A DNA stretch of 64,000 bases from Apostichopus japonicus (lineage: Eukaryota; Echinodermata; Holothuroidea; Aspidochirotida; Stichopodidae): assembly GCF_037975245.1 (NCBI RefSeq), contig NC_092563.1, positions 19,174,094 to 19,238,093 of the forward strand. Direction: 5' to 3'. The notes under the pieces are model-generated. The model saw nothing but the letters and a program-made list of their open reading frames with translations. It made no database searches and was not told the origin of the DNA. The stretch's first letter is position 1; each line of letters starts with the position of its first letter. Below are positions 9,513 through 39,500 of the stretch, in pieces. Position numbers and translations under genes: made by a program.

Positions 9513-12500
9513 TTAAAAGGCAAATCTTGTCCTGATGTCTTCCAGTTTCTTTGATACCTGCCACCAGAACAAAAAAACAGTTTAGAAAAGTAAATTAAAC
9601 AAAAAATATTGAAGAAATGTTTGGCCACTAGCATGTTGTTCGTCTACCATGTTTGTAAACTGGTGCACAAGCAGAGCTAACCAGCTAATTTTTATGTTAT
9701 AAGCAGTATTTTCAGGATGATTCTTAAATAAGAATATGTTGACAGGGATATCAAACTCAAGGGCACACATTTCAGGCTAATGATATGAACTAAGAGAAGA
9801 CAAGAAAACCACACTCATTCTTCATTATGCAATATCTGTCAAAATGATGAAATCAGGAATTAAATACTGATTTTGTTTTTGCTTTCAAAACTGCTTGGCA
9901 TACCACAAGTAACCATCATTGTAGCGAGTAGTTCACAAAATGGCCATAGCAATTTAGAGACCACCCGCATGACAGTGATCTATAAATGTACACCACCACA
10001 TTGCAAATGAGATGCCAACAGGTGCGGTCAGCTTGAATTAGATGTACATGAAAATATTTACGCAAACTGCGACATCCTCATTATAGGACCTTAAATATAT
10101 GCAAACAAGGTTTCCCAAATGCTTTGTTGTAAACCGGCTACTCTGCTTGACTGAATGCACCACAGATCAACTCAGCTGTCACAACATGGGAAACCATGGG
10201 AAATCGGGTAGTCTACTGAGCTTAAAGACTATGTCTTGATTTTTCCAGTTTTCCTGACAAAAGGCAGAGAAAACAGTCACTGCATGCCCTTATCGATCTT
10301 TGTTAGACTATAGGTCTTCACCACTACCAAACAATAGGTCAGAGTGGTCAAGCTGAGCCTATCGGAAATATCTGAATAGTTCACCTAAATACAACGGCAT
10401 GTGAACCGATAACATTTTGAAATCAGATAAACACACTACAATGTACAAACTGTAACCGATAATCTCTAATGTTCTATAAATGCTATTTGTTGATGTTTAC
10501 TATATATAGCTAACAAAACACAGCCTGAACGTATCTGTAAATGGATCAGAACTTTTACTCCAGTTCGACATCAGTTAATCTCAGATGAAGCGCGAATTGG
10601 AATTGGTTCATCATTTCCATCTACAAGTGGGCATGGAATACAGCTGAGAGGTTACCATGGTAACCAACCATCATCTATAATGATATACGATAACCTAGTC
10701 CTTGCCTTGACTGAAAACAGCTATAAATGTTTCAACTTGTGTAGACTCAAACTGTATAGAAATGTACACCACCACACTGTCTACTACATTTCTAAGGAGG
10801 ACATTTCTAAGGAGGACATTTCTAAGGAGGACATTTCTAAGGAGGACATTTCTAAGGTGGACATTTCTAAGGTGGACATTTCTCAGGAGGACATTTCTCA
10901 GGAGGACATTTCTCAGGAGGACATTTCTCAGGAGGACATTTCTTAGGAGGACATTTCTAAGGAGGACATTTGTAAGGTGGACATACCTCGCTGGGGTTCC
11001 GCTCCAGTTCTTCGGCCACGCTCTTTTGCTTCCCTGACTCCATAGAGTTAAACTGTTCACACAAATCACCATCGATCACATTCTGTGAAAGTAATATAAA
11101 TGTTAGTTTAGGAATGGAATATTTCCCCATCAATGACAGTTTTAGTGTGTTACAGCCAAGTACTGTTCCTCAAACTAAAGAGACAGATAAATAACAAATC
11201 GTTTTGACCCCTTTAAATGTTCACCAATGCGGAGATAGTTTTAATGAATGTTGAAAACGCAAACTCTGAAATTGTAGTGCTTTGGAGGTTGCCAAAGTGC
11301 AAAAATGGGCAGTACAAATTGTCCCCTTAGATATACTCACAAAGTTTCCTGTAGGCATAAATAAGTGTGTACAGATTACATTCAACTTTTCAAATTTATC
11401 TCAAAATTACAGGGTGTACAGGGTACACTGAATAGGTGGTCCACTTAAAAGACATGAATGGCCTGCATACCTGATTATAGCAAGAATGTGGGTGGAATTT
11501 GTTTTATTCATCAGCATGACTGCATCCTCCCCCCCACACCCCACGGCGGGATGTGGCTCACAGGGCTCTTATTGAAAACGTTCGATCTCTAATGCAATAA
11601 GTTGATTCACTTTACCAGCCCTCTGAAGAGTATTACATATAAGCAGTACAACTAACTTCAAAGATTAAAATTCAGCAAGACACTATTGGTCTATATTCTA
11701 GATACTAGAAATAGTGAGTATTTTCCTTTTCTTCAGAAATAATTTTCAATAAGTACACTTTTCCCTATTGCGGCAAACCCCACATGGGGCATCCACGATC
11801 TTAGCCATCAACCATATAAACTGAGGGAGGCTAAAGTTTCCTTCTTTGCTTAGAGGATGTCATTTGTTTCTCCTAGAGGTAGTGTTGGCGATAAACAAGT
11901 ACTTTCAACATGATATTCCTACTTATACAGATATAGTGTACTTATACCCCTATAGGTTAACAGGTATGTATCACTGCAATGATACTACACTCACCTTGAC
12001 AGGGAAGTAATATGACCGGTACGAGATGTGGTCTCGCCCGCAAAGAGGAGGGTATTCCGCTCTCATGTGCATCTCAAGATGCTGGAAGAAATCGTGATCC
12101 TACAGAGAGGAAAGGTTGATGACAGAAGTTATTTGCAGGGAACATTTAAACTACAGCCAATGACCATACGATTAAAGAAGACAAGAATTTATATTCATAA
12201 GGTACTGTAAATATAATCAATTTGATCGATCAATCAATCAATCATATTCATTAATTATTCATTCAATGACCATAGGGCTTCAAAGAGGCAATCTTACCTC
12301 ATGTGATGTGAAGGGGACTAAGATTCCAATAGCTCCTGAAAGTGTGGTGTACACAACCGACTCGGAACCACCTGGGATGAGGGTACACTTTTGTAGTGAC
12401 AGGACCGTCTCACCCACGTGGAAAGTGGCAATGGGGTCTGCCTTCTGAGATGCTCCACTCAGAACGCCTCGGTCCCAAAGGGCTTTGATGCCAGTTGGGT

Positions 12501-15500
12501 CCTCATCTACGCTGTCATTCACGCTGGACGTCAGACGGATCTGAGAGAAGACAAAACGATGTAAAAACCCTCTCGTCACTTGTCATCATTGTCAAATCAT
12601 TTAAAACAGTCTTCCTGTCAAACAAACCTTTCTACATACAAATGAACTCAAACATACAAATGAACTCAACAAATGAACTCAACAAATGAACTCAACACAT
12701 ACAAATGAACTCAAACATCTTCAAATGATTCATACAATCAAAAGCAGATTATATCGTCTTTTTTCTCCAAATCTAGTTACACCATGCTATAAGCACCCTG
12801 CAAATGAGATGGTAACAGGTTCGGTCAGCTTGAATTAGATGTACATGAAACAATTTTATGCAAACTGCAACATCCTCATCATTGGACCTTAAATACATGC
12901 AAACAAGTGGTTTCCTGGCAACTCTGCTCGACTGAATGCACCCCTGCTCAACTCAGCTGTCACAACATGGGAAATCGGGTAGTCAACTGAGCTTAAAGAC
13001 TATGTTTTGATTTTACCAGTTTTCCTGACAAAAGGCAGAGAAAACAGCCACTGGATGCCCTCATTAATTTCTGTTAGACTATAGGTCTTTCACCACTTCC
13101 AAACACACTACAATGTACAAACTGTGAACGATAATCTCGAATGTTCTATAAATGCTATTTGTTGATGTTTACTATGTATAGCTAACAAAACAAAGTCGGA
13201 ACGTATCTGTAAATGGATCAGAACTTTTAATCCAGTTCAACATCAGTTAATCTCAGATGAAGCGCGAATTGGAATTGGTTCATCATTTCCGTCTACAAGT
13301 GAGCATGGAATACAGCTGAGAGATTACCATGGTAACCAACCATCATCCGTAATGATTTACGATAACCTAGTCCTTGCCTTGACTGAAGCTGACAATAACT
13401 AAGGTATGTTTTTATGAAATTGATTAAGTGAAAACTGCTGCATATGTTGCAAACTTGTGTAGTACTTTGACTCAAAACTGTATAGGATCCTTCATCTTAC
13501 GGGACTCCTACATTGATGTACCCTACCACATTTCAACATGCAAGGATTCAAATCCTAGCTCGTCTGTTTATACATCACTTCTAGTATAAGGATCAACAGA
13601 TAATCACTTCTAGTATAAGGATCAACAGATAATCATGGATCCAAACATCCCATTCATAAAATTCTGCCATTTCCATTATTTACAAAGTTAATGCACAAAG
13701 GTTATTACTCACAGAGATAAATTTTCACTTATGAATATCTACCAGGAACAGGTTTTGCTTTAATTAATGTTCATAACTCATACTTTGCTATAATTATTCT
13801 ACATGATTCCAGAAGAATAATCAACACAACCCGGGGAAAAGTATGTCAATCAAATTTCAATGAAATCTATCAAAACAAATCTATTGCACCTATCTACTGA
13901 AATCTGCCTGCCTCTCTGTTTATCCATAGAGATCATTTGCTTTGTCGTACCACTGAAATATTGCCAAATTTGTCGGCACACATGACCGTGTCGTAGTCAA
14001 GGATGCAGGTAGCTGTAACCCATCTCGCGTACGTGTCATCCGCAAATATCACCAGACTGTTCTCCTGTCTCTTGTACCGGACAAAATGGAGGCTCTCCTG
14101 AACGTCGCTGACAACGATGCGTTGACCAACGGAGGTGACGTTGACGATGAAGTTTGGAATGTGCTGCAAAGAAGTTAAGATGGATACTAAGCCTCCTGAT
14201 AAAGTCATACAAATTCAGTATTAGTCCTACCAAGCATAATGAAACATTTATTTAATATTTGCCTGACACACAATAAAACCCAGTATAACTTTCAGAAATT
14301 TTGCTTCCTTGCCACCAAAATGGCAGGCACCTCCGACCAACCCCCCCCCCATCCCTACCTTCCACCATATCCATATCAAAGGAATTCCAGACTGTGGTAA
14401 AGGGAGATTGGGATTCCCCATTACCAAATGTGAAGCAAAATTAAAGAAAAGACCTATGTATTTTCTGTGTTATTTTTTACTTTTTTCGTCTTTTTATTGT
14501 CATTTTCAGGGTAACTAGCCACAACAAGGTTAGTGCCCTGGTTACTGGTGCTGTTCACCTTCAACATCATATGTCTAGTTTGGTTACTTATGTTAGAATG
14601 TCTAGAATTCAATGTCTAGATATACTGATAGCCATTAAGTCCTAGTTTGAGAGTTATCCATTTCTGATCGGTACGAGTGAGTGACGCTTGATGTCAACCA
14701 AGGTAGATAAATTCACTGATCAGAATCACAGCATCACTGTCATGACAATAATTAACATCATGACTGGGACCCACCCATCTTCAGAGGAGGCTACGATGCC
14801 CTCTACCCATTATCTGCCAGTAGTACAGAGTCCCAACCTTTCTGAGATTGGTAGAAAATCCTTGCACTTTCCACTTTCTATTTCCAATTGTTAGCCTCCC
14901 TTAAGGTTTAAGGTAGTCACATAACAACGAGTAATGTTCTGATATTCCACTTACCTTATTTTCACATTTTCTCAGCAGTTTCTTTTTGCCAAGGTCGTAT
15001 ATTCTCAGCAGCTTTCCGACCCCAATGAGTACTCTTCCTTGGAATGGACATATTGCAGCAGGAACGTCATCTACCAGAGTCTGCGAGAAAAAAAGACAAA
15101 GTTTGATTGAAAATGTTTTGGGTTCCTCATGAATGTGAAGTACAATGTCTTGAAGCAGTTATTTTCATAAAATCTTTGCTGTGAATCACTATGAAGATGG
15201 AGTAATAGAATGTAATGTATTGCCTGATATTCACTTCAGTTCCATATTTCCATCAAGTTTTCGCTAAATTTCTGTCACAGTTCAGAATATTTGTTTGTTT
15301 GATACTGCTATCGCCGATAATTCCTGGAGCTTGCTCAAACCGGCTACCTGCTTTTAGCTACAACTAAACACTTAAATGTTAAGAAAACCTAGTAAATAAT
15401 CAGCTATAACTTGTGTTTTCTATGGGTTCAATCACTACATGTTTAACTGGATGAACTTTACACCCATTCCTCCCCAAACCAACATTGAGCACTCCTCCCC

Positions 15501-18500
15501 CACCCCCCACCCCCAACCTTTCTGTAACTAAGCTTACATATCTTTCTTGTGACTTTACAATTTTAAACACTTGTGTCCTCAGTTTGTTTGAGTACAGATG
15601 TAATCAAGGACACAACTTCAACCAGACAGTGGATGTGATTCTCACACAAGGTGAGGTAATCGACACAGAGTCCCAACGTCAGGTAGTCAACAGTGAACAG
15701 CTGAAGAACTCGGCTGTCCATAGTTAGCAAACCCCAACGATTCGAAACTCCAGTCCACTGTTTAGAAGTAGCAGGTCCATTCAGCCCAAATGCCTGACCA
15801 TCATTGGACACGCTAAGATTGGAAAGAGTTTTATTACGATTCTTTTATGATATATATCACAAGTGTAAACTTAATTTTACCTGTGACACATAGACTTTGA
15901 ATCCATTAGCTAGGAGCATTGGTCCCAAAACACCTGAATAATGCTTGACTTTGTGTTTGGGTTTCCTATCACGATGCTCTGCATGATCTTGATGCAGCCA
16001 TGTTATTCCAAAACATTCCCAAACCATGAACCAAATTCACTGTTATATTACTCCTAATGAAGTTCCACTCAATTTGGCATGGTGGTACCAGTAGTTGATT
16101 ACTAGAAGTACATACAAGTTTGATAATAATTCCTAAAGAGGTCTCTCAAAACATGTGTGGAAATTTTCAGTCAGTGGCTTAAGCACCTTAAATGTTGGTG
16201 AAAAACTGCACAAGCTGGAACTTTTTTGAGTCAATCATGCTTTGTGTCTACATACAAATTCACCCGGGGGTATTTGTATGCTTCTGTGCACTCTTTGTGT
16301 TACTCTGATGTACTGCTATGTTACCTAGTTGATATAACAAACTGCTGAAATGAAAATGGAGACTGCATCACTGACCTTGTGTATAAGTTCAATCTCGTTG
16401 CCTTCCTCCTTGACCAAGTAGGTGTAAATGATACCTCCAGAACAGGTCCTGGGGCTCATGGTCAGATCCTTGGCTGTACCGATCAAGACGTACGTCTGGT
16501 CTGGGTGGTTGTTAAACTTACAGACCGACAGGCTGTGAACGAATCAAACATCACCTTATGCTATGGGAGTCACAGAAATCGAAAAAAGCGAGCTTACCGC
16601 TCGGAAGTTGTATATCATCTGCAAAAGGAGTTGAACCCTAAGCTTAAGCAGAGAGTGCCATTAGGGACAGTTGAAACAAGTGGTACTTGTTACACCAGTT
16701 TGCCTGCACTGGGTGCTCTGTGTACTACGTAGTATATATGGACATGATTAAGGAGGGTGGAGTTTTGTTATAGTTTGAACCTGGCACAACATACTTGTGG
16801 CGTAATACAGAAATACCAGCAAACAGCCAGTCTCATGACAAACATATACAAAAGCGTGCTTTAATATATTTTTCACAGGAAAAATTCAGTAAGGTTTCCT
16901 ACTATAACATACAATTGTACAAATACGAACACACACAAGAGAGTTAGAGCTATACAAACAATATTCTGAAAACATTATTCACCATTATGATTTAACTATT
17001 ATCAGTCTAGGAATAAGTACACACCCATTTTAATTCCAAACCTAGTCTCTTACCTAAAGGCAGCCTCATTCTGCTCCAGTCTGATCGTATCTAGGGTGTT
17101 TCCCTGGACGGGATTCAGTAGCCTGATCTGAGAGGCCCACATCCCGGCACCGGCCTTGGGAGATCCAAACTCGCTCTCTTGTTGGTCCTCCTTCAGGAAT
17201 GCTTCTGCCATCTCAGCTGCCAATTCTCTATCCTCTTCACCAGCAGCTTCTACCATTTCCTGGAAGTAAACAAAAAAGCAACAAATGTTGCCAACCATAT
17301 GACAACAAGCATACACATCTTTTCTTGTGACTTTAACATTTTAAACATTTGTGTCCTCAGTTTGTTTGAGTACAGATGTAATCAAGGACACAACTTCAAC
17401 CAGACAGCAGATGTGATTCTCACACGAGGTGAGGTAATCGACACAGAGTCCCAACGTCAGGTAGTGTTAACAGTGAACAGCTGAAGAACTCGGCTGTCCA
17501 TTGTCAACAAACCCCAACGATTGGAAACTCCAGTCCACTGTTTAGAAGTAGCAGGTCCATTCAGCCCAAATGCCTGACCATCATTGGACACGCTAAGATT
17601 GGAAGGAGTTTGTTTATTATTCTTCATGATATACATCGCAAATGTACAACTTAATTTAACCTGTCACACATAGACTTTGAATCAATTAGACAAAACAAGA
17701 AAAAAAAAAAAAAAAAAACACTTGTTGTCAACCATTTGACAACAAGGACACGTAACTGGCAGAACAAAATCTATTCCTAATAGCAACTTTGAATATTTAA
17801 TAGAAAATATCTTGTGCAAATTTGTGTTTTTTCCTCTGAATTTTTCATTCGCTCGATCTCGGCGAATGGGCCAAACGTTTGGAGAAAGAGCACATGTCAT
17901 GATTATGCGTACTTTCTACACACTACTTACTACCAACAAGAGATGGTTTAAACCATCCAGATTAAATAAGTAATGAGGCTTTAAGTTACAACAGACATTT
18001 AGTTGTTGCACAGGCCTATCTCCATCATAGAAAGTATACGTCTATAAAGTTGTACTTGGGACTCACTTCGGCCATCTGCTGTTTTCGCTGAGCCTTCGTG
18101 GTTTCTGTGTATGCATTGTGGTCCGTCTCTATGACGACTACATTACTGGAGTCTGGCAGGACTGCAAACTTCCTTGGACTGTACTTTAAAGGTGTCGAGA
18201 CCTGGTTGAATACTGCTCCTAACTTCTCCAGAGCCAAGATTCTTTAAAGCAAATAGTAAGTCAACAAGTCATCAAGACATCCTTGTTCTGATTCTACTAT
18301 GATATACAATACTGTTCCATACTCAAATCTACTAACAATTCAGTTCGTTAGCAGCAAGAATAGTCAATTTCTACATTGTCAAATCTAGAAATAGTAAAAA
18401 CAAACAAACTATTCGCATTCTGCATGGGATTAATACTTAATTTTGAATGAAAAACCTACCCAAGATATTTTCATTACAACACTGAAAAACACATTATTTT

Positions 18501-21500
18501 AATGTTTGGAATGTGCAGTCTACAGAGACCTGGAGGGGTCAAACTGGGTTGGTTTTGTGTGGTATGCAATCAGCACACAACAATATGCACAGCCATAGGA
18601 ACCATATCAAAGTATTTATAACTTCTGCCACACAGTAGATCATACACACCAGTAATCCCTGACTATTTGCTGGGACCATCAATCAATCATGACCAAAGAA
18701 GTCTTTGTGTGTTGATGCCACTCACCTCAGTGTGTTGGTAGAGATAGCTACGATGCCCTCTGGACACTGCTCCGAGGCAAAGCCGGAGGCGTACTCCAAC
18801 GTCTCATAAGAGAGTGGTGTCAGATGGAACCTGGACTGGTACCAGTAACTCAACCACGATCGACTGGACATGGCAAGCACCTACAGAAGGAAGGAAAAGA
18901 AATCAAAGCTAGTTGATGACAAATTCCAGCTAGCAGGTGCTTCACTTGAAATAGAGGGCAGCATACATCAACAAGAAGACTGGATGAAACTGATGATGAA
19001 ACTAAGGATCCATGTTATGAGTGCAGTTCAGATTTTAAAAAAGACACGATACTAATATCAGATTCGCTAAGATACATGTCTCCACCTACATGTCAGAGGA
19101 TGATGTTTTCACTTAGACAAAACAAGTGAAAAGCTGAAATTCCTTTGTGACCAAAGTAAGTGAACAAATCTTATCATCCCATTCCCTACAAGATCACCAA
19201 CCCCTCCCTTACATAAGTGATCATAAATAAGTAAATAGTTTCATCATTGAGTCAGAACAAAGCAAATACAAAACCATCTCCTATTTAGGATGAGGAAACC
19301 ATCACAGTTCATTCCTTCCCTCATCAACTCCCCTTCCATTTTACTACTCCACATTCCCTATCTCCTTTCCACTTCAAAGTTTCTCTTCAAATCTCTTCTT
19401 GCCCATCTCCCCCCCCCCCTCCCCTCCACATACAATAAAATTGAAATACCAAATCTCTGTCAAGAATAACTAAATACTCACAGCCTCTGACCCTTGCATA
19501 AATATTCTAAAGAGCTTGACAGGTCTTGAGCCGAGGTATCTTGTTCTCGTATCAGATAAGTCTCCGGTCACTGAATCTAAGACCATCCTCAACAAGACAC
19601 CATTCTGTAATAGGAAGATAAGAAATACTCAATACAGGGTATCCCCTCAGTCTATAGTCAGTAAAGTCTCTCTAACAATGAAGCCCACAGTTGCTGCACC
19701 ACACCCTGGGACAATAACATGATTCTTCTTAACTTAACCAACCAAAGTCTACCTTCATTGTATTGAAAATTGTATCGGATGCCAACCCCCCCCCCCCCCC
19801 TCCAGCACACAAAAAAATGTGAGTTTCTATCTTTTTTCTCTTTTAATAAACACAAATATAGTTGAGCACAATGTTAGATTTCATTTCAGAGTTGAGAATG
19901 TCTGTTGTAAAAGCACATGCAAGCATTTTTTTTTCATTTTTAATTATCTTTCTTTGGTTTCTATTCTCTTTTTTTTTCCATATTTTAGTTGTGCACTCAT
20001 CAGATGAAAATTTAACCCAATGTCTGACATTACACAGGATCAGAAACATGTTTCCATTTGGACATCAGTTTTCTCAGATGAAGCACGGATTGGAATGAGT
20101 CATCATATCCTGTAGAATGCACACACCATCTTCAAATACCTCCATCATGACCTCCTCTTCTGAAGTTAGGAACAGTGAAGAAATGGAGCTCTCCAGCATT
20201 TCTACGGAGAGTGCTCTCATACCGGTCGCAATGTAAGTGATTTTGACTAGATACTTTGAAAAAATGTTTCAAAAAGATCTCTTTCTCAATATCTCCAAAT
20301 AACTACAACTAGTAAAGTTTTCTGGAACCAGATAGGACCAATATGAAAGCACCCTCTGTTGTTTTAAGGCATGGCTGACGAGCCCCAATAGAACCAGATA
20401 GGACCAATATGAAAGCACCCTCTGTTGTTTTAAGGCATGGCTGACGAGCCCCAATAGAACCAGATAGGACCAATATGAAAGCACTCTCTGTTGTTTTAAG
20501 GCATGGCTGACAAGCCCCAATAGAACCAGATAGGACCAATATGAAAGCACCCTCTGTTGTTTCAAGGCATGGCTGACGAGCCCCAATAGAACCAAATAGG
20601 ACCAATATGAAAGCACCCTCTGTTGTTTTAAGGCATGGCTGGCGAGCCCCAATAGAACCAGATAGGACCAATATGAAAGCACCCTCTGTTGTTTTAAGGC
20701 ATGGCTGGCGAGCCCCAATAGAAATTCAACTTTGCAAGGTTGTAAAATGATTCTGTGCAACATACTTCACTACTTTCAGGCACATTTGCTTATTTACCTG
20801 TAAACCAATGTTCAGGAACAGACCCCCTGACGTCCCCCTGTCCTCGCCTCTTTCCTCCCTAGTATCGGACCCAGATCCCATCTCAACGATGCAGAGACTC
20901 TCGGCTGGAGCTGGTAAGGCTTGCATACTGAGTGGTTGCAAACAATCCTAGAGGTAAAGGAAAGCAAATGATCAAAAGTTCTGTTTCCATTTTAACAGCC
21001 ACCATAAATATTCATTATTCATTCCAAGGTATCATCACCGAGACTGATTCTCTATGAACTCATCTGTATATTGGAAACTTTTGTCAGTGTACAGCAAAAG
21101 CCAAAATTAGATACACATCATCAGCAAACATTTGCATCCAATTTATTTTCATTATATTTTATAATATTATTATTTTTTATTATGTTTTATTTTTTATATT
21201 TCCATTAATTGATTAAACATTCTTTAGAGCAATTACAAATCATATCAATACTTACATTTTGGTCCAGGGATATGATTCTGACAGTGTTATCATCCAGCCC
21301 GACCGCCAAGAAGCGAGCCCTCTGTTCACCTGACGGTACGCTAGCCAGACTCATGCACTTCACATCTGTGGACATCTCCTTCCTCTCTGTATACTCATTC
21401 AGCTGGCCGGTCTGTGAATAAAATAAATCACGATAGAGACATATTGAGTCACAGGTTCCACAACCATCCACATCATCAAAGTAAAGGTTTGGATCTTATC

Positions 21501-24500
21501 ATAGAGACTAATTGATTCGAAAAGTTGATTTTTTTTATATTAGCAACCAAACAGAGAATATATGTTAAATGCTAATCATAATTAATATATGCTAAAAATG
21601 AAAGAAATAATTTTACTCACTGGATCCATCTCAAAGTACACAAGTTCTCCGCCAGTCAAAGCAATCACAACCTGTGATGACAAAGGTAAAAAGTTGTTAC
21701 ACCACTACCACAGCTAACATTAATTACATTCCATTACTTAAATCAACAGTAAAATCAGCTCGGATCAGGAGATTCGTCATCAAGAGATCAGATAAAACCC
21801 GAAATATCTTCATCATTTCCAAGCCTCCTTTAACAAAATACAATCTGGATGGAGCTCTACGGGGTCTCTTTTTGGAAATCAAAATGAATATTCATGAGGA
21901 TCACTGACCAATAGGAATCCAGTGAAAGCTGAATACGTACGGTATTACATCTACAGCTTTATTACACCTTTAAACTGAACAGTTCGCTGGAAAACTCATC
22001 AACACCTACTGACTATTCATGAGTTCTTAAGTAAAAGCTGACAGGTCATGGCTCTCATAGTATCATTACTACAATTGCAATACAACATTGTAGCAAGCAG
22101 TGCACACTCTGCTCTGTTACAGCAATGGTCAACTCACAAACACCTGCTCTGCAGGTTGTACTCATACCTGTCTCTGGTTGACAGCACATTACTATAACAT
22201 TAATACAACATTGTAGCAAGCAGCGCACACTCTGCTCTGTTACAGCAATGGTCAACTCACAAACACCTGCTCTGCAGGTTGTACTCATACCTGTCTCTGT
22301 TGACAGCACATTACTATAACATTAATACAACATTGCAGCAAGCAGCGCACACTTTGCTCTGTTACAGCAATGGTCAACTCACAAACACCTGCTCTGCAGG
22401 CTGTACTCATACCTGTCTCTGGTTGACAGCACATTACTATAACATTAATACAACATTGCAGCAAGCAGCGCACACTTTGCTCTGTTACAGCAATGGTCAA
22501 CTCACAAACACCTGCTCTGCAGGCTGTACTCATACCTGTCTCTGGTTGACAGCACATTACTATAACATTAATACAACATTGTAGCAAGCAGCGCACACTT
22601 TGCTCTGTTACAGCAATGGTCAACTCACAAACACCTGCTCTGCAGGTTGTACTCATACCTGTCTCTGGTTAACAGCACATTACTATAACATTAATACAAC
22701 ATTGTAGCAAGCAGCGCACACTTTGCTCTGTTACAGCAATGGTCAACTCACAAACACCTGCTCTGCAGGCTGTACTCATACCTGTCTCTGTTGACAGCAC
22801 ATTACTATAACATTAATACAACATTGTAGCAAGCAGCGCACACTCTGCTCTGTTACAGCAATGGTCAACTCACAAACACCTGCTCTGCAGGCTGTACTCA
22901 TACCTGTCTTTGGTTGACAGCACATTACTATAACATTAATACAACATTGTAGCAAGCAGCGCACACTCTGCTCTGTTACAGCAATGGTCAACTCACAAAC
23001 ACCTGCTCTGCAGGCTGTACTCATACCTGTCTCTGGTTGACAGCACATTTGACGATGTTCTTCTTGCCGGGTGTCTTCCACTCGTTGACACGCTTATCAG
23101 CTCGAATATGCCTAATACCATCCGGATATATCTACAGGAAAGAAATCAAAGAAATTAATTGGATAACAAATCAATCAATGAATGCATCACACAGCTATTA
23201 AATTCATAACTTCACACTTGAGCATAGTGAGACTCACATGCACAGACAGACGATGTACAATCTTTTCTGGGGCCTGTGTCAAGGTTTGGAAAAACCCTGT
23301 TAATGCCACCGACCAAATATTTTGCAACGAACGACATTAAATATTTATACTTCGGTGAGTTTGAATAGAGGCCTAGGGCAAAGTTGTGAGATGGGATTTA
23401 AGGTAATAGATATACAATGCGTTGATGTGTTTTAAGTTCCCATGTAATTTACTTTTTCCTTCTTCTGTCATGGGAGTAGGTATGTCCCTGCCTGTTGTCT
23501 GCTTAGGTTAAAAAAATATCACTGTGGCCTACAAGATCACTTTTGTGCTAATCCCTGCATAACATAGATCAGGGTAAAATTACTTTTTACTCATTAAACA
23601 ACTTGTAATAACCTGTAGCCTCCTTAGACCAGCTGTGATAATTCACTGGATTTTTGTGACTTACTCTCTTAAAGCCATTGAAAGACAATTTGACAATGTG
23701 CATCAGAGTTATAGGTCGGAAAAACAACACAAATCATGGTCAAATGAGCTTGGATCAGGAAAACGTTCATCACGATTTTTGCCAGCCGGTTAATTGCTAT
23801 AAATTCATGATCTTATCCTTCTTTTTCATGTCCGAGATAAAATTATTACAAAAATAAACTTTCTTCCTCTCATCACCCTTTCCCCCCACCCCATTTTCTA
23901 GTTTTTAAAGATCCTTACCTGAAGAAGAGCGTCATCTCCTATGAGAGAGGATGAGAGTGTTGGTGTGGTTCCGAGAAACCCTGAATCTGTGACTTCTTCT
24001 ACGGTTTCACCGATAGAAAGGACCAGAGTAGCGTTCACGAAGGACACAATGATGTAAGCATCGTACTCCTCTGTAGGAACACAAAAGAAACAAGAGCATC
24101 AATGACGCAGTATCTCAATACTGGAAGTTTTAATTTTGATTCCTAATTTCAAATCTTTGCTCTGTCTCTACAATTATCAATATCAATCATGGTACAACGA
24201 ATATATAACTTGCATTTTTGCCACTAATAGTCTCTGCAGGTTACACTTTATCCTGCTAGTCTTGCCTTTAGCGCTCATTGCCTGTTAGTCGAAAGAACGA
24301 CATTGCAAGGTTTAGTAATGTCATAGAATATTTAAGAACTTGTTTTTTATGTGGTATCCTTCATCTTGGGTCAGTCTCTGTTGGACTTTTTGGTCATATA
24401 GTTTGACGTCAATCACAACGGCCAAATTAGAAGAGGCGAACAACTCGACCATATTCTTGATGCCTGCCTTGAGAGCTAGGCCTATTGACCTACTGTATGT

Positions 24501-27500: not shown

Positions 27501-30500
27501 ATTTATGTTTAACATCCATTCTGCAATTATTGAGCTGGGTTTGACAAAAAATGTAAGCATACACTGTTGTGAATCAGCATCAAAATAAGTCATCCTATGT
27601 ATATCTTGCAGACTAAAAAAAATCCAAGATTAAATACCAAGGAAATAGTGTTGAGAAATATTGTCATTGCATTAAATTCAAATTCAGCAATTACTAAGCC
27701 AGGTTTGAAACAAATTGGAATTATTCAATTTTAATTGTGATATCATTAAGGATTAGCTTGTCCTTTACAATATGTTACCATTGCAGAAGCATCATTGACA
27801 TATCATGTAAGAAGAGAAGGTTAATTAACACAATTACTGCTGAAGCATGAACAGTGATGAATCAACAGGAAAAACTCTGTCAGTAATTTTTGCAGACAGA
27901 AAGAAAGTCAAGATAGCAACCAAGAAATAAATGTTAAGATATATCGCCAATGGAATAAATAAATATCCACATAATATCAGCCAGACTTGTACTTGACAGC
28001 AAAATCATTAAGGGAATACTATATCTTTAAACCTTTGCACCTATTTCAGTACACAGGGTAAAAGTAAGAGTTGGGGACATTCACCTCCAAACCGTGCCTG
28101 AGAACCCTCATCGAGGACTTTGGTCCTCGTCCGCACGCTACATACAGCTGTGGAGTGTCCTCATTGGCCAAATCAGCAATCTGTGAAGTGAAAATCAAAC
28201 CACATTACTATAGTAGCATTCATAATAATTATTTGAATACTCCTCCTAGAACCACTACTAATGAATACTCAACTTTTTAACGTATATCTATTTATTATTT
28301 CACAAAATAAACTTAAAACTTGGACAGAAAACACCCTCAAATTAATATATATTTAAGGAGGTTCCTTCAATTAATATTTATTCATGAAAATCTGTCATGT
28401 GAGACTTGCAAAGTTCTCTCCAACAAATCTCTGAATTTAACAATGTTCTGTGATGTCTTGGACCACATGAACCCTGTGCTTACTTGAAGAGTTATCATTC
28501 TCTTAGATAAATATCATTAATTGTTACCTTACTAGGGCTGTGTCATTCCGGTCAATTCACTAACCGGTTAACCGTTTCTATTAACCGAACGGTTAACGTT
28601 TAAACGTAACCCGTGTTGTTGCCTCAAAATAAGAGCCGAAAATCAGAGTTATATAGCTCAGATTATAATTCCGAAAGAGCGCCACCACTTTTGATGCGGA
28701 AGTACATTCTCAAAATAGCGCTGCAAGTATCGTTTTTTCGTAACGCGTATGTCAAGAATTTGGTTGTATTTGCTTAGTTTTGACGATCGTTGCATTGAAA
28801 AAGACGAATCGCGCGTTTTCATGAAGTTTTCTCTTTCAGTTCATCGGTAACTGTTACAGAGATATTTGAAGCAAATATTTCTTCGTTAATTGCGTAGCCC
28901 CTACTGTAATAGCGCAGGCATTGTATGGCAGTTATAAGCCTAATATTACTAGGCCTACTTAATATTGGCATTGTGTATTGAAGTTCGCGATCATATGGAG
29001 TGTTAGACTACAAGGCCAGCTAGGCCAAGGTTAGGAATGTCGGTTGCTAGGAAGCGATTACTACAGAAGTGTACGGTAGTAGGGCTAGGCCTACGCAATT
29101 ACAAGTACAACAATGGGTCACAGATATATTGAATTTGTGCATTGTGGCGGGGTAGGCAGAGGGTAGGGGGTAAGTGTGGAAAACATTGTAAAATTTCCCG
29201 CGAACACCCTGTCGATTTCCCGGCGGAGTTCGCGCAGCAAACACAATTAGCACGCGTAGCATAATGGCGTGGGGTAGTCCCCCGGTGGGGTCATGTGGTG
29301 GAACCCCTTGTGGGGGTCCAGGGGTTAACGCCCCGGAAAATTTGGCGCGTCTGGCGATAAAATATTCGCAGCTGTGGATGCAAAATACTGACAACTTTTT
29401 TAATTTAAATTGTCACGAAACTGATGAAAATTTTGAAATGACAAGTTACAGTAGCCATATTTTGTTATAAAATGAAAAGAGATCTATCTGTCTTACAATC
29501 AGTGTTCGATTTTTCCGGTATCGCATCGCAAAATGCGATCCAACACGACAAACTTGCGAGACGTTTCCAAATCAGCATCGCACATTGTGCCGATTTGTGC
29601 GATACAATTTCCTAGTCAGATTTGGGAGCAAACACTCAAACCTTAACTTACGAACTGTCGATCACAATGTAGAAGTTATAATTTATTGAGTTTATACTCA
29701 ATGTACAACTTATTCACTTGACCGTATAGCGAAAAAAAAACCTGAAAAAATAATATCCTACCATAGTTAAGTGTAAAGCAAATAGCCTAACCACCTCGGC
29801 GGTTACGGATCTCACGTAACTAAAAGGTTCCCTGGCAACGTGCCAAAAAATGTTAACAAACAGGTGTTACACAGGGGATGAGCTCACAGTTGTTGGGAAG
29901 GTACCTGGGCAAATTCGCAGCACATGTACCGTGGTACAGTAGTTGGGTATAGGGTTAAACGCATAGTGCACGCTATTCATTGTTAGGCAGTCTAGAAACG
30001 GGGCTTTGCTGAACGTTGTTTGTTTCATAATATCGGAAGTTTTGTAAGTTGCACTTTTTAAAGATTGAAAGACAGATTAAATGTCTTTTCATTTTATAAC
30101 ATAATATAGCTACTTTAACTTGTGACTTTAAAATTTTCATCAGTTTCGTGACAATTTAAAAAAAAAAAAAGTTGTCAGTATTTTGCATCCTCAACTGCGA
30201 ATTTTTTCATCGCCAGACATCGCAAAAAATGACAACAATTTTCGGGGGCTTTCGCACTCAGGATCACGAGGGGTTCTCCCCCATGACCCCACCATAGCCC
30301 TAAGACGGGCCCCTGGACACCACGCCTTTATGCTCGCACGTAACGCGTGCTAGGTCGGCGAACACCGGCGGGAAATCGGCAGTGTGTTCGCGGGAAATTG
30401 AACAAGGTTTTCCAACACTGCTGAACTGTGCAGTTACTGTATGCATCATGTTCAAGGTCTTCACGGAGGCCTTTGAGGAAATGAATGGTTAGTACAGTGT

Positions 30501-33500
30501 ATATATGCTGCACTAATGCTGTGTGTAGGCCAAGGTTCACGAAGGTCATTGGTTATATTCGCGCTGTAGACGTGTTTTTAGATGTTACGGAGAGTCAGGT
30601 TTCCATGAATATTAATCGAAAATGAATCTGAGTTTAACTGACGCTAAAGAAATGGATCGTCTGGGGCAGATTAACAAATCATTGCAAGTATAAATAAGTA
30701 CAGGTAGCTCTGCTGTTAAAAAGAAAAGTTCAATATCGGTTTGCTGTTATCGGCAATTAGGCAAAATTTTACCGATACCGATATTCTGCCGATATTGCAA
30801 ATATCGGCCGATACCGATATTGAAAACGATTATCGTAGCAACACTAGTATAAATAATAATAATAAACAAAAATTTTCTAGTTAATACATTGATCGCCAAC
30901 ATTTGGTCCGTTTTGTGGTAATTTCAAAACTGCTATTCAATATTGGGGAACTGCTATGCAACAAAAATATTGTATAGCAAGTGTCGAAATTTGTTGCTAT
31001 GCAATTTTTTGGCCATAAGTCGAACACTGCTTACAATCATTAAAAAGTTAAACTTAAAAAAACATGCGATTTTATGAAACAACGTTCGGCAAAGCCCCAT
31101 TCCTAGACTGCCTAACAATTGCTTGCACTATACTACAACTACGGTAGGCTACATTTTCCAAGGTACCTTGCCAAACAACTGTGAGCTCATCCCCTGTCTA
31201 ACACCTGTTGTTAACAATTTTTTGGCATGTTGCCAAGGAACGTTTCATGGTCTAGAATTAATAAGGTCAGTCAGTAAAGGTTCGGTTAAGTTATGAGAAT
31301 TATTATCTTAGACGTTTAAGAAAAGTAGGTAAAATATGATCCCCGTAACAGCTAGGTAAGTAAAACAGGCAACTGACTCCTCCGCATGAACAAGACAATC
31401 TATTCCACATGATACATGAAAGTAAACCTTGTAATCACATGTTTAAGGCCACTTGGCATGATTAACTAAATGCTTAATATTGTTTCCATGTTCTTGTAGA
31501 AAACGTAAACTTCGCAATATACAATTAGTTGTGTTTTTGTAGTTACGTGAGATCCGTAACCGACGAGGTGGTTAGGCTATTTGCTATACACTAAACTATG
31601 GTAGGATATTATTTTCTCCGCAATTTTGGAAATTCTAGAAAATACTTTTTCGCCGCTTAACAGCAGATGTGTTCTTACGTTTTATTCATAATTGGGTGTA
31701 CTAGAGCCTTGTTTACATGACATTAGTTGCATTTAGCACGATATGCCAGTTTCGCTTGAATTTTTCGAAAGTTTTTTGCTCGATCTTTCGTCTAATTTGA
31801 AAGGTGTACCAACTTACTTTTCGTACACAATTGCTTATTTCTCTACTGAGTTTCAGAGTTTTTTTTACAGTCAAGTGTATACGTTGTGCATTGAGTATAA
31901 ACTTATCGCGAATGCAAGAAAACGATGCGGGGATTTCCAGCAGACAAATGTTTTGTGGGATTACTGAGTCTGTTGAATGGAATCCCGCACCTTAGAGGGA
32001 ACACTGAACTGAAATTACATCATAATAAAGAAAACGTTTACTGCTTAAATACAATATAAATTTGAAAGGATTAGATGCAGACTCGCCACGTTGTCGAACG
32101 GGGTAACAATAGGCGCTTCACGGGTCGCATACCGCTTGGTAATCCCTTCAATCGTACCGCCAATCTTAAAAAATTTTTGTATGGATGCGTGATAAAGTTT
32201 GCAAATTGTTACGTGATTTTCGGCAAGCAAATGTTGCGGTCTATTTCGGGAATAAAGTGATGTGAAGACGCGCCGTTGCGACTGCGTAATTGGCATTACA
32301 AAAACGGTTAAACTTATACGATGTACGGCGGACGTTTATCCGGCCGTTCGGTCGGTTAACCGGTTAACCGTTTAACCGTTACAGCCCTATACCTTACAGA
32401 TGTGAGTTCTACATAGTGTGTTGAGGCTATGGTAGTCATTAGTTTGATATCTGTCTTTTATTTGCTATCATAGACACATTTAAAATGTGACCATCACCAC
32501 ACTAACATGCCACATAGACACCACTTTTTTCATTCACAGCAGTCAAACTCCATTCATTCAAAGCCAAGGATAAGCAATTTTATCATCAAAAGTTTTGCAG
32601 GGATTGTCCACAATATTTCATCGTTTACTTTGTGCCAGCCATCGATGAGGGGTCTTGATTCATTCCTTATTTCCAGCCAATGAAAAAATGACACTTACGG
32701 TACAGTTGAGGATGGGTGACAAACTTTCCAGTTGATCAACTTCCACCAAATTTCTGAGAGGCCTGGGAGCAAAAAAGAAGGTTTCTCCTTCCTCGAGATG
32801 AGTGGCGCTGCTGAATTCTTGCTCGTCGTCGTCATCACCGAGATGAGCGATTTGGTAGAGGTAGCTGAGGGAAGGATTGAAGGGAAAGGATTAAAGGAAA
32901 GATTAAAGGAAAGGATTAAAGGGAAGGATTGAAGGAAAGGTTTAAAGGGAAGGATTAAAGGAAAGGATTAAAGGGGAAGGATTAAAGGAAAGGATTAAAG
33001 GGAAGGATTTAAGGAAAAGATTAAAGGGGAAGGATTAAAGGAAAGGATTGAAGGGAAGGATTTAAGGAAAGGATTAAAGGGGAAGGATTAAAGGGAAGGA
33101 TTGAAGGGAAGAATTTAAGGAAAGGATGAAAGGGAAGGATTGAAGGAAAGGATTAAAAGAAAGGATTAAATGGAAAGGATTAAGGGAAAGATTACAGTGG
33201 CTGAAGTTTTCTACATCTTTAGCTTAAAACCACATCCTCCACTTTTCTAAGATATATATGATTTTATCTAATTTCCGAGATATTTTGTGAATTGCAACAG
33301 CAGAACAAATGCCATCATTGCAATTGACCTCAAAAAAGTTTTTTGTTTTTGCCATACAATATTTTAATCATTATTACATAGATAAAAGTGATATTTCTAG
33401 CAAAAGCTTGATTTTTCTCTACAAGAGAAGAAAAATCTAACAATGGATGTTTCACACCATAAAAAATGTAATTGGTTTATTGAGAAATTTTGTAATGATT

Positions 33501-36500
33501 GCATGTTCTGCTAAATAGAGAATCACAAAATGAACAGATATTTATTTTCAAATAATATTCCTTATATCAAAAATATTAATCTACTGCCATACTTTCTGAC
33601 ATCGTAACATTAACTAACAATGCAAGACAAGCCCAACATTGAAATGCATCCATACAGGTATCTGTTCAAACCTACAATGGTGTCATACAACTATTGAAGT
33701 GCACTTCATCAAAGACTTCAAACCAGTTTCCAAATCTGATCCCATTTTGCCCCTTTTCATTATTGCTCTGCTCAATTTTCATACATATCCACACACCATT
33801 CTTTTCTTACCGATCAACACTATCAGAGTTAATATTTAAAAGTGTTGTATCATTATCTAAACAATCATCTACACAATCATCTACACAATCACAATCACGA
33901 GCTTTTGGCCACACATTGCATTCCTAGCGATTTCATTAACTTTAGCTCTCCAAAGAAAACAAAATCAACAAATCATGATGGGCTTGGATCAGGAGATTCG
34001 TCATCAAGAGTATTGCAGATAAAACCCGAAATATCTTCATCATTTCCAAGACACTATTGTAATAATATCCCACCAAGCATAACCATTGTACTGACACTGA
34101 CACTGCGTAGGGTTTACAACTGCATGCAGACTATACAAGATACTCAACTGTTTAGCACAGAGTTCAATACATACTATTGCTTGAGCCAATGTTTGTGTGA
34201 ATACCAACTGTTTCCCAGCAATATGCAGCACTCAAAGGTTTGACTTCAAGCCATAACAAATAAGTATCCCATCATCATTTGTTTTGCTTTACAAATATTT
34301 TAATCCTTAATACACAGATGCAAGTAATATTTCTAGCAAAATCTTGCTTTTTCTCATACAAGAGAAGAAAAATGTACCAATGGATGTTTCAAACCATCAG
34401 ATAATAAAAAAATTTTATTGGTTTATTGAGAAGTTTTGTAATGATTGCATGTTCTGCAAAAAAGAGAAACACAAAATGAACAGATATTTATTACCAAATA
34501 TTTATTACCAAATTTATTACATCAAAATGCATATTAACCAACTGTAATACTTTCTGACATTATAACATTAACTAACAACAGGGATGTAAGTGCAGCCAAA
34601 AAAAAAACCTGGAAAACTATTCGGAGAAAGCCGTCCTAACACATCCTACTCCTAGCTCTGAATACTTACGCACTATCGTTATGTTAGGCTAGCTCAAAAG
34701 TATTAGCGCTAACACATTCTACCCCTTGTTCTGACTACTTACACACTATCGTTATGTTAGGCTAGCTCCAAGTAACGAATACGTCGCAGCGAAATCCGGA
34801 ATAAAAAACAGTCTCACATTTGAAAGCGATCACGAATATCGACTATCATATGCGTATCCCGTAGATTTAGGCGCTCACAAATATCACAAGCGTTAATTCC
34901 AAAACTTATGTCGAGCACCAGCAGTTACGAATCAACGTGAATTAGGCAAGGTTTTTCAACGACAGAAATGAGCTATGGCGATTTGAAGTTCGCACGTACG
35001 CAACGATGTTCACATGGCACACACAATGTTGTACAGTGCAATGCGATGTGTAACAGGAAATGGTATTTTGCTTGATCGATGAGTGAAAATTGAAGTTAGC
35101 TTGCTACAACGGGCCAGGCATTTTTGCCGCGTTGTGTCTTCGATATTTGTACAATTTTGTGGAACTTTATCGGAATTAAAAAAAAAACAGATTTCCGTAA
35201 AAATACGGAAGACTTACATCCCTGTAACAAAGCAAGACAAGCCCGACATTGAAATGCACCCATAAAGGTATCTGTTCGAACCTATGATGGTGTCATACAA
35301 CTATTGTCTCTTTTGTACAACGGTGTTATCACATTCAGCTTTTCCCCTCATCCATACAAAACTACAAAATATTATCTTTAAAACTCAAAACCAAAAAATT
35401 GGTTCATTGTTCCATACACTGAAGTAATTAATGAAAAACAAGCTGAAATTATTCAAATATGATTCCTGTCACAGCTGTTGTACAATTCATGTCCATAAGT
35501 CTTCTTTAGCTAATAACAGATGGCTTTAGTTCAATCCTTACATAGATGCAGCATGTAATAACACAGAGTGGGTCACATTTAAATGGTATTGTAGGAATGA
35601 AGCTCACTACTTACTGATTGCCAAACTCTGCAGCAATGAAGAGGAACCCCGTCTTGAGTACATTCATGGTGGTCGCCACGGGCACCGTGTCAAAATACTT
35701 CATCCTCACCTCCGTGACCATGTCTTCATCCGTCTCCAAGGTGATTTTGAAGAGGTCTCCTTGCTCCGTTTGAGCCAGGAAGAAGAACATGGACTGAAAT
35801 AAAACATTAAAATTAGGTTAAGAACATCTTTTTCAACACAAAGTTCATCACCACCATTAGCTAATTCAAACGACCACGAGATCACTTGCAGCATCATGAA
35901 GATATATACTTTCAATTCTACGAACTGTCTAATTTCATGAAGAATGAGGGGGGAGGGGAGGAGAGGTAGGGATGTGATTATACGACCTGTAGTACTACCA
36001 AATGAAATGCATACATTTCCATAGAAAGGATGTTAATGACATATTTCTGCAGTTGGTTTCCATTGGTAACTGCTTCACTTGTCAAATATTTCATCAAGTC
36101 CTATGCATTATTTAAAATAAAGGAACAAAAGAATATTTTACATATTTAAATGACAAATGTCCCTGGCCAGGTTACCCTACTGGCCAGGTTATCCTAAGTG
36201 TGCCAGTAACCTTACCTTGGTTTTGTGAGTTGTGCTGCAGACAAATATCATACCCCTCTCTGGATCGTCTAGATCATTCTGTTTGAGAGAGGAAATGCCT
36301 TGAAACAATTACATGTGAAGAAACGAGAAAACAATCGACAAACTTCATCCCCAAGGGGAGAGATGGAACCATTTAATTTGATCCCATTATCAATTATTGA
36401 AACTTTTATGTGGTTTCATGTTCTTAATTAAATAAAGTCTATCCATCTACCAAGCTACAATTGATAAAGCCCCTTGAAGTAAACGATGCATGATTTGTAT

Positions 36501-39500
36501 GCTACTACTGTAGTCAAGTTACAAAACTCTTAGTACCTTAAAGAGGTAGCTACATTATTTATGATAACTGCTGTCTCAATGTGAAATCACTGTCTGCCAA
36601 GTTGGTCATTTTCTATCGTAACCAGCAATACCATGTATGCAAAGACAAAAGGATTCCTAATTACTTTGAACTTAATGTCTGGCGCAGGGAATCATTTAGA
36701 TTCCACATTTTGTGTAGCAGTTTTGAAGCCTCCAAGGTTCGTCTCTCATAACATACTATGGTTCCAGTTAAAACACGGATATACTTCTTTACTGTCCTTG
36801 AGAGAAAATCAACCAAATTTACCCTTCTTCTTGGAATTGGCATTCTTATATCCGGCTGGTCTCCAAGATTCTTGTATGTGATGTAATTCTCTGAACACAC
36901 CAGGACTCCACTTGGACCATCACTACCACCAGGAACTGCAAGGTTTGACGAGAAAAAAAAAATCCAAGGATCAGGTAAACCAGCTCCTTGGCTTGAAAAC
37001 TTGAGTTGTAACGAGGAAGTGACCCCTCTATTGGCAGACAATGTACAGATTTTTGGACGATATCAGAAAGGCATTGCAATGGGACATCTGTATGGAGCAA
37101 ACACTACATCATAACGGTACGAAGAAACAATTCAACAGGATTCTATACCTTGATGTTTGAATGAGATTCTTTCACTTCCATCTCCATCTAGGTTATTAGT
37201 ACAGACAGGCAGCCTGAAATATCTTGGTGTTCACATTTTGTGTAGAGGGTTTTCAAGGCTCTGGATTTATGTCTCTTACATAATAGTATGGTATCTGTTT
37301 ACAGAATCTGCTCATAAATCTTTGCACTTGTACAGAAATTGCTTGTATGGAAAGTGCTATGCGATGCTCCATAAATTATTACCTAGGCAGCTCTTGGATC
37401 AGAATTTATATTCCAGATTTACATCACTCTTATTCAGATGAAGCGCGAACTGGAAGTATTTCATCATGTCCAATTGCTTGAAGGAACGATTCTCAACTCC
37501 CATCGAGTTGTTGAAAGTTTACAAAATTAAGGCAAGACCTGTGCTACACTGCTAAGTGGCTGCCACTCTAATCCTGCCTGGGGTACTAACTGTTTTCAAT
37601 GGCTATTGTTTACCGAGCTCTTTCTTCTTTACTTTTGATGGAAACAACTTTCATGGATTAAGTAAGGTAATGCCCATTTCCGCATCTTACCTGCGATGAG
37701 GAAGTTTCCGTGTTCTTCTAAAGGCTCGCTGTACTTGCGGACGACGTGGTTGAGGCCGAGGTCCAGCTCGTAGTAGGTGAGCAGCTGAGAGGTGTTCTGT
37801 GCTCCTTCTCCTGTGGGATCACTGTCTGCCTCCTGCAAACAATAGCAAGCAGCATGAACAACAATAGATAAATTCAAACAATAGCAACCAGCATGAACAA
37901 CAATAGCAACCAGCATGAACAACAATAGATCAATTCAAATTATGCAAGACAGCAGCACATTTAGTTCTGAAACATTAACATGGTTCATGTGAGGTTTGCA
38001 CAGCAAAATGAAGACTGAATGTTCAGAAAACATGGAAGAAAAGGAAAACCAAGACTTTACAAGACTTAGTGAGGACCTACCACAAAATCAACTTGCATTC
38101 CATGCTGAAATTCAGAGTAACCTTTAGTGCCAATTTTGACAGGATTGACCGGTGGGCTATTAAATGCCCTTATTTCTCAAACTACTTTCTTCTGAAAACT
38201 CCCATCTGATTCAAAATAAGTAATCATCACACTTGTATTAACAAAACATATAGATGGAACAAAACTTGAAACTTGCCTCATAATCAAACTCGAGACAGGC
38301 GAACATGGGGTTCTCAAAACCAACATCGACTCCGACGATATGAAAAGAGAAAGTACTGGATTTGTGGGCTTCTAGAGGGGAAGATATGGTCAACCTGGCC
38401 TGGGCATCCCTGTTGAGGATGTACACAAGTTTCTGTTTCTCGATGGCACCGACCATGAAGGCACGACCCTTGGGGTCCACGGCTAGGAACTGACCAGGGA
38501 CGATTCTACGACAACCACTCTTCCCAAACGTCTCTTGATGTACCTGTCGGTCAGTGAAAACCATGATTATTGTTGCTAGAGCATATATACAGCCTTAATC
38601 AGTGAATGAAATTATCTGCCTAATTAATGTATGCAAGGATTTGAAAATGGAATACCCAAGTTATTCACTATTTTCTTTCCGTTTAAGCATAAGAACACTT
38701 AAAAGTAATCTGAAGGCTGAATGCAAAAAAAAATTAAATATTTAAGTGGTTGTGAAAGTTCCAGTTTAGAAACTCAATTATTTTTCAAGTGCCCTTACAC
38801 AGTGCTTTATGACTTTTAAAACAAGAGTAAGGTATCACTTGATCATACAGAAAATAAAATGATCGCTGAAATCTGATGTCGCAAAAGCCTCTACATAAAA
38901 GCAAAGTTGTTCAAAAAGGAGCCAGCAATACACAACCTTACTTGACCTCATTTACTTAAAAAAAAAAAAAAACTTATAAGGACAGATTGTGGACTTCAAG
39001 AAGAAACATACTTCTCTCTCATTCTTCATTAGTGGAAAAAGGCTCTTCTGTAGAAATGGGGCAGCTTACAATTAACTTAACGATACACCACCAATACTTG
39101 GATCAGAATTTATATTCCAGATTTACATCATTATTTTTCAGATGAAGCGCGAACTGGTAGTATTCATCATGTCCAAGGATATGGTATTTACCTCATTCTG
39201 TACTAAAGTAACCTCTTAATAAAACCTGAACTGATGAAGGGGAGGCGGGGGGGGGGAGGAGGAGATGACAGGAAAGACAGACAGAAAGACTGATCCATAA
39301 CCTTGGCAACATGCTACCAACAGCTCCTAGAGTTTAAACAAGACAAGATTATGGCCACCCACTCCGTGTGCTTCTGGACAGGGCGGTGATCCATCAAAGT
39401 GGTAGGTTGTGGTTGCCATTGGCCTGTACAAATCGACAATCCTCCTCATTTATTCCACAATGCATAAAACTTCATAACTTAAAATTCAAAGGCTAGTGCT

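What the first reader, a model, noticed from the sequence alone, without database searches (positions are those of the whole stretch)
10541..39177. SF3B3 is a multi-snoRNA host: nine introns each carry one C/D-like element
Copies at 10541, 13213, 20034, 21758, 23747 (decayed), 26919, 33982, 37394 and 39097 lie in introns 25, 22, 15, 12, 11, 10, 7, 4 and 2. All are on the SF3B3 sense strand and there is never more than one per intron, the classic layout of intron-processed snoRNAs. Eight have C, C' and D boxes and a terminal stem; D' is canonical in six and weakened to CTGC in two. Copies sharing a guide differ in stem sequence while keeping pairing.
Basis: partly seen in the sequence, partly recalled or inferred. 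Interest (0 to 1): 0.85.

Follow-up and report, generated by a model that had tools for sequence, protein, structure and literature searches.

The report
Guide-RNA family inside SF3B3 introns
Ten introns of a splicing-factor gene, apparently from a sea cucumber, each carry a small box C/D guide-RNA gene or its decayed remnant; eight look intact, five of them share a guide that fits one spot of the large ribosomal RNA, and this extends a known habit of the same host gene in flies and vertebrates.

Summary
SF3B3 (26 exons, 1,219 aa) carries eight intact-looking box C/D snoRNA genes, one each in introns 2, 4, 7, 10, 12, 15, 22 and 25, all sense strand, plus a decayed copy in intron 11; I found a probable second decayed copy in intron 8. 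Two groups: A (five copies) shares a D' guide whose three versions each pair 13 contiguous bases with the 28S motif AUGAAGCGCGGGU; the predicted 2'-O-methylated base is an A 39 nt upstream of the R2 site. B (three copies) has a constant guide with no target found in the rRNA I could read. Genome searches found no copy outside this gene. Between most introns only the snoRNA aligns; boxes plus D' guide vary less than the rest; stems covary. There were no expression data, most of this genome's 28S is withheld, and two A copies pair about as well with an 18S site, so processing and target are inferred. SF3B3 is already known as a recurrent snoRNA host (SNORD111/111B in vertebrates; six C/D and three H/ACA in Drosophila), so this is a new, large member of a known kind, with guides unlike SNORD111.

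The parts
9513..41092 (-). SF3B3 host gene, coding exons 1-26 (1,219 aa)
39097..39178 (-). Group A C/D snoRNA, intron 2 (D' guide AGTTCGCGCTTCAT, D' CTGA, stem CTTGGA/TCCAAG)
37394..37475 (-). Group A C/D snoRNA, intron 4
33982..34053 (-). Group B C/D snoRNA, intron 7 (D' weakened to CTGC)
32563..32631 (-).
   Evidence: 22.8 bits, E 0.0033; weaker support: 84 of 20,000 random windows of the gene, real copies included, score as high
26918..26989 (-). Group B C/D snoRNA, intron 10 (D' CTGC), in a 579-bp segment duplicated with intron 7
23747..23822 (-). Decayed group-B-like copy, intron 11 (C and D' lost; C'-like GTGATGA and D CTGATCC kept)
   Evidence: 13.2 bits, E 0.74; 74% over 54 nt to B33982
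21757..21826 (-). Group B C/D snoRNA, intron 12 (D' CTGA), 85 nt from the 3' splice site
   Evidence: through a neighbouring CTGA
20034..20117 (-). Group A C/D snoRNA, intron 15 (guide version AATCCGTGCTTCAT; stem TACAGGA/TCCTGTG)
13210..13294 (-). Group A C/D snoRNA, intron 22 (stem with one C/A mismatch)
   Evidence: missed by the descriptor
10538..10622 (-). Group A C/D snoRNA, intron 25, in a segment duplicated with intron 22

Best explanation
SF3B3 of this animal is a multi-snoRNA host gene. Its transcript is spliced; each debranched intron is trimmed back to the C/D RNP that forms on the terminal stem and boxes (inferred from the known intronic pathway). Group A snoRNAs (five copies) use their D' guide to pair 13 bp with 28S AUGAAGCGCGGGU and direct fibrillarin to 2'-O-methylate the A pairing with the fifth base upstream of D', 39 nt upstream of the R2 insertion site (I put this target at about 0.65). 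Group B (three copies) is a second C/D snoRNA with a constant guide of unknown target. Copies spread from intron to intron by duplication within the gene, some recently with their flanks, and some have decayed. Shown: anatomy, position, no match outside this gene, low variability of boxes and guide. Inferred: expression, processing, methylation.
For: Descriptor scan: 7 hits, all copies, 0 of 100 shuffles. Genome searches: a group A query 5 matches, a group B query 3, the guide-plus-box pattern 5 with 0 in its reversed control, all inside SF3B3. Outside two duplicated segments only 50-89 nt aligns between introns although 600 nt of flank were given. Group A columns: boxes plus D' guide 29 of 33 invariant (one of the four others is an alignment gap) versus 14 of 36 elsewhere between C and D, Fisher p 4.5e-5. 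Stem: 4 of 8 pairs changed on both sides, covariation score 0.425 reached by 3 of 500 shuffles, 0.175 at most when slid. The three guide versions each pair 13 contiguous bases with the 28S motif; best common run elsewhere in readable rRNA is 10; 11 of 4,000 joint column permutations reach 13 or more in 2,981 nt. Pairing of the 30-nt flanks, terminal stem included, is at or below the lowest 5.25% of 400 random intron controls in 6 of 8 copies.
Against: No Rfam family reached its gathering score; permissive scanning gave 9 weak C/D rows, 29.2 bits or less, on 6 of the 8 intact copies and none on B26919, B33982 or the decayed ones. Most of this genome's 28S is withheld: 11 of the 13 target bases come from a stick-insect 28S string (PMC4370867, passage) and the first two (AU) are recalled. 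A39097 and A37394 pair as well or better with an 18S site when one mismatch is allowed (14 pairs; -19.9 against -18.2 kcal/mol). For one shuffled guide alone, a 13-base run arises in 52 of 4,000. In the two recent duplicate pairs substitutions are not significantly rarer inside the snoRNA: B 0 of 68 versus 22 of 464, p 0.095; A 3 of 86 versus 12 of 201, p 0.56. 7 of 8 copies lie 429-2,847 nt from the 3' splice site, outside the 70-90 nt that I recall as preferred. Two of three group B copies have a weak D' box. I recall no methylation at the predicted base in human or yeast. No RNA data.
Confidence: 0.88

Rival explanations
1. A short interspersed repeat, or retroposed snoRNA pseudogenes, scattered through introns, with boxes kept only by recent spread.
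For: Several copies, two decayed; two pairs sit in recent segmental duplications; selection tests on these pairs are not significant.
Against: No other match in 671 Mb (these searches score only best candidates); sense strand in 8 of 8; flanks unalignable between most introns while boxes and guide stay; stems covary.
Confidence: 0.05
2. Real C/D snoRNA genes, but most are silent, unstable or non-guiding; only one or two copies (for example B21758 and A10541) yield RNA.
For: 7 of 8 lie far from the 3' splice site; A13213 has a damaged stem; group B has no convincing target in readable rRNA, U2 or U6.
Against: Strong flank pairing, which might replace the position requirement, in 6 of 8; all three guide versions keep the 28S pairing.
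Confidence: 0.3
3. Group A targets 18S (position about 678 of the own 18S) rather than 28S.
For: A39097 and A37394: 14 pairs with one mismatch, -19.9 kcal/mol against -18.2 for the 28S motif; all three versions have a 10-base common run there.
Against: The other three copies pair less well with 18S (-14.8 to -14.9 kcal/mol against -19.8 to -20.7 for the 28S motif); the common run is 10 against 13.
Confidence: 0.1
4. Group A is the echinoderm SNORD111 and targets 28S G3923 as in vertebrates.
For: Same host gene (PMC6124571, PMC2653536, passages).
Against: At most 7 pairs, with one mismatch, to the recalled G3923 site; spacers no more like the SNORD111 consensus than shuffled ones; RF00611 gave 6 weak matches in the genome, none in SF3B3 (64 of 174,826 candidates scored).
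Confidence: 0.04

Closest known systems
SNORD111 / SNORD111B (HBII-82) in vertebrate SF3B3
   Same: Box C/D snoRNAs in separate introns of SF3B3, 28S target (human: PMC6124571; chicken introns 3 and 6, D' guide: PMC2653536; passages)
   Different: Two copies, not eight; guide for G3923; no spacer similarity; no RF00611 match in this gene
Drosophila Sf3b3 (CG13900) snoRNA cluster
   Same: Large set of snoRNAs in introns of the same gene: six C/D plus three H/ACA, with suggested lineage-specific duplication (PMC12309372; nine snoRNAs in PMC4901365; passages)
   Different: Fly sequences were not compared here; the paper puts most fly C/D copies in another cluster than the expressed vertebrate ones
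Multi-isoform intronic C/D snoRNA families (for example U58 in RPL17, HBII-99 with four isoforms in chicken)
   Same: Copies in different introns of one host by cis-duplication (PMC2653536, passages)
   Different: Five plus three intact copies of two guides in one protein-coding gene is a large case

Membership tests
Box C/D snoRNA | C (RUGAUGA) and D (CUGA) boxes at a terminal stem | tested here: met
   Boxes 8 of 8; stem of 5 or more contiguous pairs in 7 of 8
Box C/D snoRNA | Internal C' and D' boxes | tested here: met
   C' TGATG 8 of 8; D' CTGA 6 of 8, CTGC 2 of 8
Box C/D snoRNA | Guide of 10 or more nt next to D or D' complementary to rRNA or snRNA | tested here: inconclusive
   Group A: 13 bp to a 28S motif taken from another animal plus two recalled bases, with a rival 18S site for two copies; group B: none convincing in readable own rRNA, U2, U6
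Box C/D snoRNA | Intronic, sense strand, one per intron (animal layout) | tested here: met
Box C/D snoRNA | Stable processed RNA bound by 15.5K/NOP56/NOP58/fibrillarin | not testable with these tools
   no RNA data
Any Rfam C/D family | Score at or above gathering threshold | tested here: not met
   0 matches in the window
SNORD111 (RF00611) | Guide complementary to the 28S G3923 site | tested here: not met
   (target string recalled)
SNORD111 (RF00611) | Located in an SF3B3 intron | tested here: met

The most novel reading that the evidence does not exclude
Five redundant group A snoRNAs methylate a 28S adenosine not modified in human or yeast (from memory), just 5' of the H69 region (from memory), and group B is a paralogue of A whose guide changed to a new target after duplication. 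Together with fly and vertebrate SF3B3 this makes the gene a place where unrelated guide RNAs repeatedly arise and multiply, possibly because hosting them in a splicing-factor gene couples splicing capacity to ribosome modification. The two unexplained structured 250-nt elements in introns 18 and 20 would be a third RNA family of the same host.
Probability: 0.3. Interest if true: 0.55.

Novelty: new member of a known kind. Interest (0 to 1): 0.4.

Why it matters
It adds an animal that looks like an echinoderm to the short list in which SF3B3 hosts snoRNAs, with more C/D copies than the six reported for the fly and with guides different from the vertebrate ones. A constant host with changing cargo makes it possible to ask why this gene keeps acquiring guide RNAs, and it predicts a specific, checkable 28S methylation.

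Tried and rejected
Rfam gathering scan of the window: nothing. SNORD111 family search of the genome: 6 weak matches up to 34 bits, none in SF3B3; the best (L005) has poor C and D' boxes by eye and I treat it as chance. D guides of group A: no common target seen, and the C'-to-D spacer is variable (8 of 19 columns invariant). Group B target: runs of 11 in 18S and in the 5' part of 28S, which 813 of 2,000 shuffled guides equal; nothing convincing in U2 or U6. Group A on U6: 9 pairs at GTGAAGCGT, shorter than the 28S match. Group A and B as paralogues: spacer shuffles gave 22 and 99 of 2,000, suggestive only. Literature, this library only: no paper was listed with sea cucumber, snoRNA and SF3B3 together (15 of 73 papers listed, each with two of the three terms); searches with amphioxus, sea urchin, SF3B3 and CG13900 (listings) and passages of PMC8580430 gave no account of snoRNAs in an echinoderm SF3B3. 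PMC8393311 (passages), PMC9074282 (passages) and PMC13228274 (outline and passages) did not settle whether the predicted site is known. Two slips in my notebook: entry 1 says every copy had a weak Rfam match (6 of 8 did), and its yeast and human numbers for the predicted base are recalled counts that I no longer trust; the report uses the distance to the R2 site instead.
Full report
Setting. The window lies on contig C3 of a 671,581,487-base genome of 35 contigs. Size and contig number are close to the chromosome-level assembly of the sea cucumber Apostichopus japonicus (671.60 Mb, 34 scaffolds; PMC10344927, passages including the abstract). This identification is an inference. On the minus strand a 26-exon model gives a single open frame of 1,219 aa with the RSE1/DDB1/CPSF1 propellers and the CPSF_A region; its first 622 residues match PDB chains named SF3B3 at E=0.

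Observation. The nine positions fall in introns 2, 4, 7, 10, 11, 12, 15, 22 and 25, one each, all on the sense strand. Two alignments separate the eight intact ones: group A (39097, 37394, 20034, 13213, 10541) and group B (33982, 26919, 21758); 23747 is a decayed B-like copy (13.2 bits). The group B model also found a decayed copy in intron 8, about 32563-32631 (22.8 bits, E 0.0033). It is only probable: its alignment score against group B is reached by 84 of 20,000 random windows of the gene, real copies included. A descriptor (C, D', C', D, stem of 5 or more), written after seeing the copies, found seven places on both strands of the window, all among the copies, and none in 100 shuffles. 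A13213 misses on the stem (one C/A mismatch); B21758 is caught through a neighbouring CTGA.

Not a dispersed repeat. Genome searches with a group A copy gave five matches, with a group B copy three, and a pattern of C box, guide end, D' and C' gave five with none in the reversed control; every match lies in SF3B3 (four matches). These searches score only best candidates and some stretches are withheld, so 'no other copy' means none found.

History and selection. With 600-nt flanks, similarity between introns is confined to 50-89 nt at the snoRNA, except for two segmental duplications: introns 7 and 10 (579 bp, 88%) and introns 22 and 25 (287 bp at 95% and 334 bp at 83%). BLAST joined 9 of 10 group A pairs and 3 of 3 group B pairs. 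In group A, boxes plus D' guide are invariant at 29 of 33 columns (one of the four others is only an alignment gap) and the rest between C and D at 14 of 36 (p 4.5e-5; the rows share ancestry, so the p-value is only a guide). The terminal stem covaries: 4 of 8 pairs changed on both sides, score 0.425 against a mean of 0.136 in shuffles, reached by 3 of 500. Within the two recent duplicate pairs substitutions are not significantly rarer in the snoRNA than outside: 0 of 68 versus 22 of 464 (p 0.095; gap columns 0 versus 66) and 3 of 86 versus 12 of 201 (p 0.56). Selection is thus supported by the older copies, not by the youngest.

Target of group A. Counted from D', each of the three guide versions pairs 13 bases without interruption with 28S AUGAAGCGCGGGU. 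The intron-15 version turns one G-C into G-U and one G-U into G-C; the third variable position is U-G or U-A. Duplex energies are -18.2 to -20.7 kcal/mol. When guide columns were permuted jointly, 11 of 4,000 permutations gave a common run of 13 or more in 2,981 nt of own 18S, 5.8S and 5' 28S; with a full 28S this chance would about double. For a single shuffled guide a run of 13 or more arose in 52 of 4,000, so the joint test carries the weight. Eleven of the 13 target bases are printed as the 28S consensus upstream of the R2 site in a stick insect (PMC4370867, Table 3 passage); the first two (AU) are recalled; this species' own 28S core is withheld. By the fifth-base rule (recalled) the modified base is the A just before GCGCGGG, 39 nt upstream of the R2 site in the printed string. 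I recall no methylation there in human or yeast. Against this target: A39097 and A37394 also pair with an 18S site, 14 pairs with one mismatch, at -19.9 against -18.2 kcal/mol. The other three copies favour the 28S motif by about 5 kcal/mol or more, and the run common to all versions is 10 in 18S against 13 in 28S.

Group B. All three copies share an 18-nt D' guide and an 8-nt spacer before D, although B21758 shares no flank with the other two. No convincing target was found in readable rRNA, U2 or U6. Two of the three have D' CTGC. A model of group A scores the group B copies at 26.8-30.5 bits, and spacer shuffles of B reach the observed similarity to A in 22 and 99 of 2,000, so a common origin is plausible but unproven.

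Processing. B21758 lies 85 nt from the 3' splice site; the other seven lie 429-2,847 nt away. Pairing of the 30-nt flanks, terminal stem included, is at or below the lowest 5.25% of 400 random controls in 6 of 8 copies; B33982 (20%) and A13213 (32%) are ordinary. Such pairing could help processing away from the splice site (inference).

What is known. Human SNORD111 and SNORD111B lie in SF3B3 introns and SNORD111B depletion lowers 28S G3923 methylation (PMC6124571, passages); chicken has two copies in introns 3 and 6 (PMC2653536, Table 1 passage). The SnoBIRD paper uses SF3B3 as its case of a recurrent snoRNA host, with six C/D and three H/ACA in Drosophila, more snoRNAs than in the other species it considered, and separate clusters for most fly and the expressed vertebrate C/D snoRNAs (PMC12309372, passages). 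The copies here are not SNORD111: no family match in the gene, no spacer similarity, at most 7 pairs with one mismatch at the recalled G3923 site. The finding is a new member of a known kind, notable for number and for guides.

Noticed in passing
17349-17601 and 15571-15820, minus strand (introns 18 and 20 of SF3B3): A 250-nt element for which a genome search found only these two places (96% identical); each copy folds better than all 200 of its shuffles (z -3.81 and -3.49), but the reverse strand folds well too (z -3.07). No Rfam match worth the name. It may be another intronic RNA of this host; an 83-aa frame in one copy has no Pfam match and is broken in the other.
   Followed up: partly
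22079-23049 (start of intron 12): A 123-bp tandem array (7.9 copies, 98%) whose unit repeats the end of exon 12 and its 5' splice site; AGACAGGTATGAGTAC occurs 8 times, so seven copies of the splice site follow the first.
   Followed up: partly
20325-20723 (intron 15): A 66-bp tandem array, 6 copies, 97% matches.
   Followed up: no
G000 contig C16, 31.015-31.156 Mb: 42 of the 46 U2 snRNA matches scored lie here in an array, many spaced 645 bases apart; the true number may be higher.
   Followed up: no
G000 contig C5, 74-630 kb: All 40 scored 5.8S matches lie on this stretch in changing orientation; only 40 of 15,748 candidates were scored.
   Followed up: no
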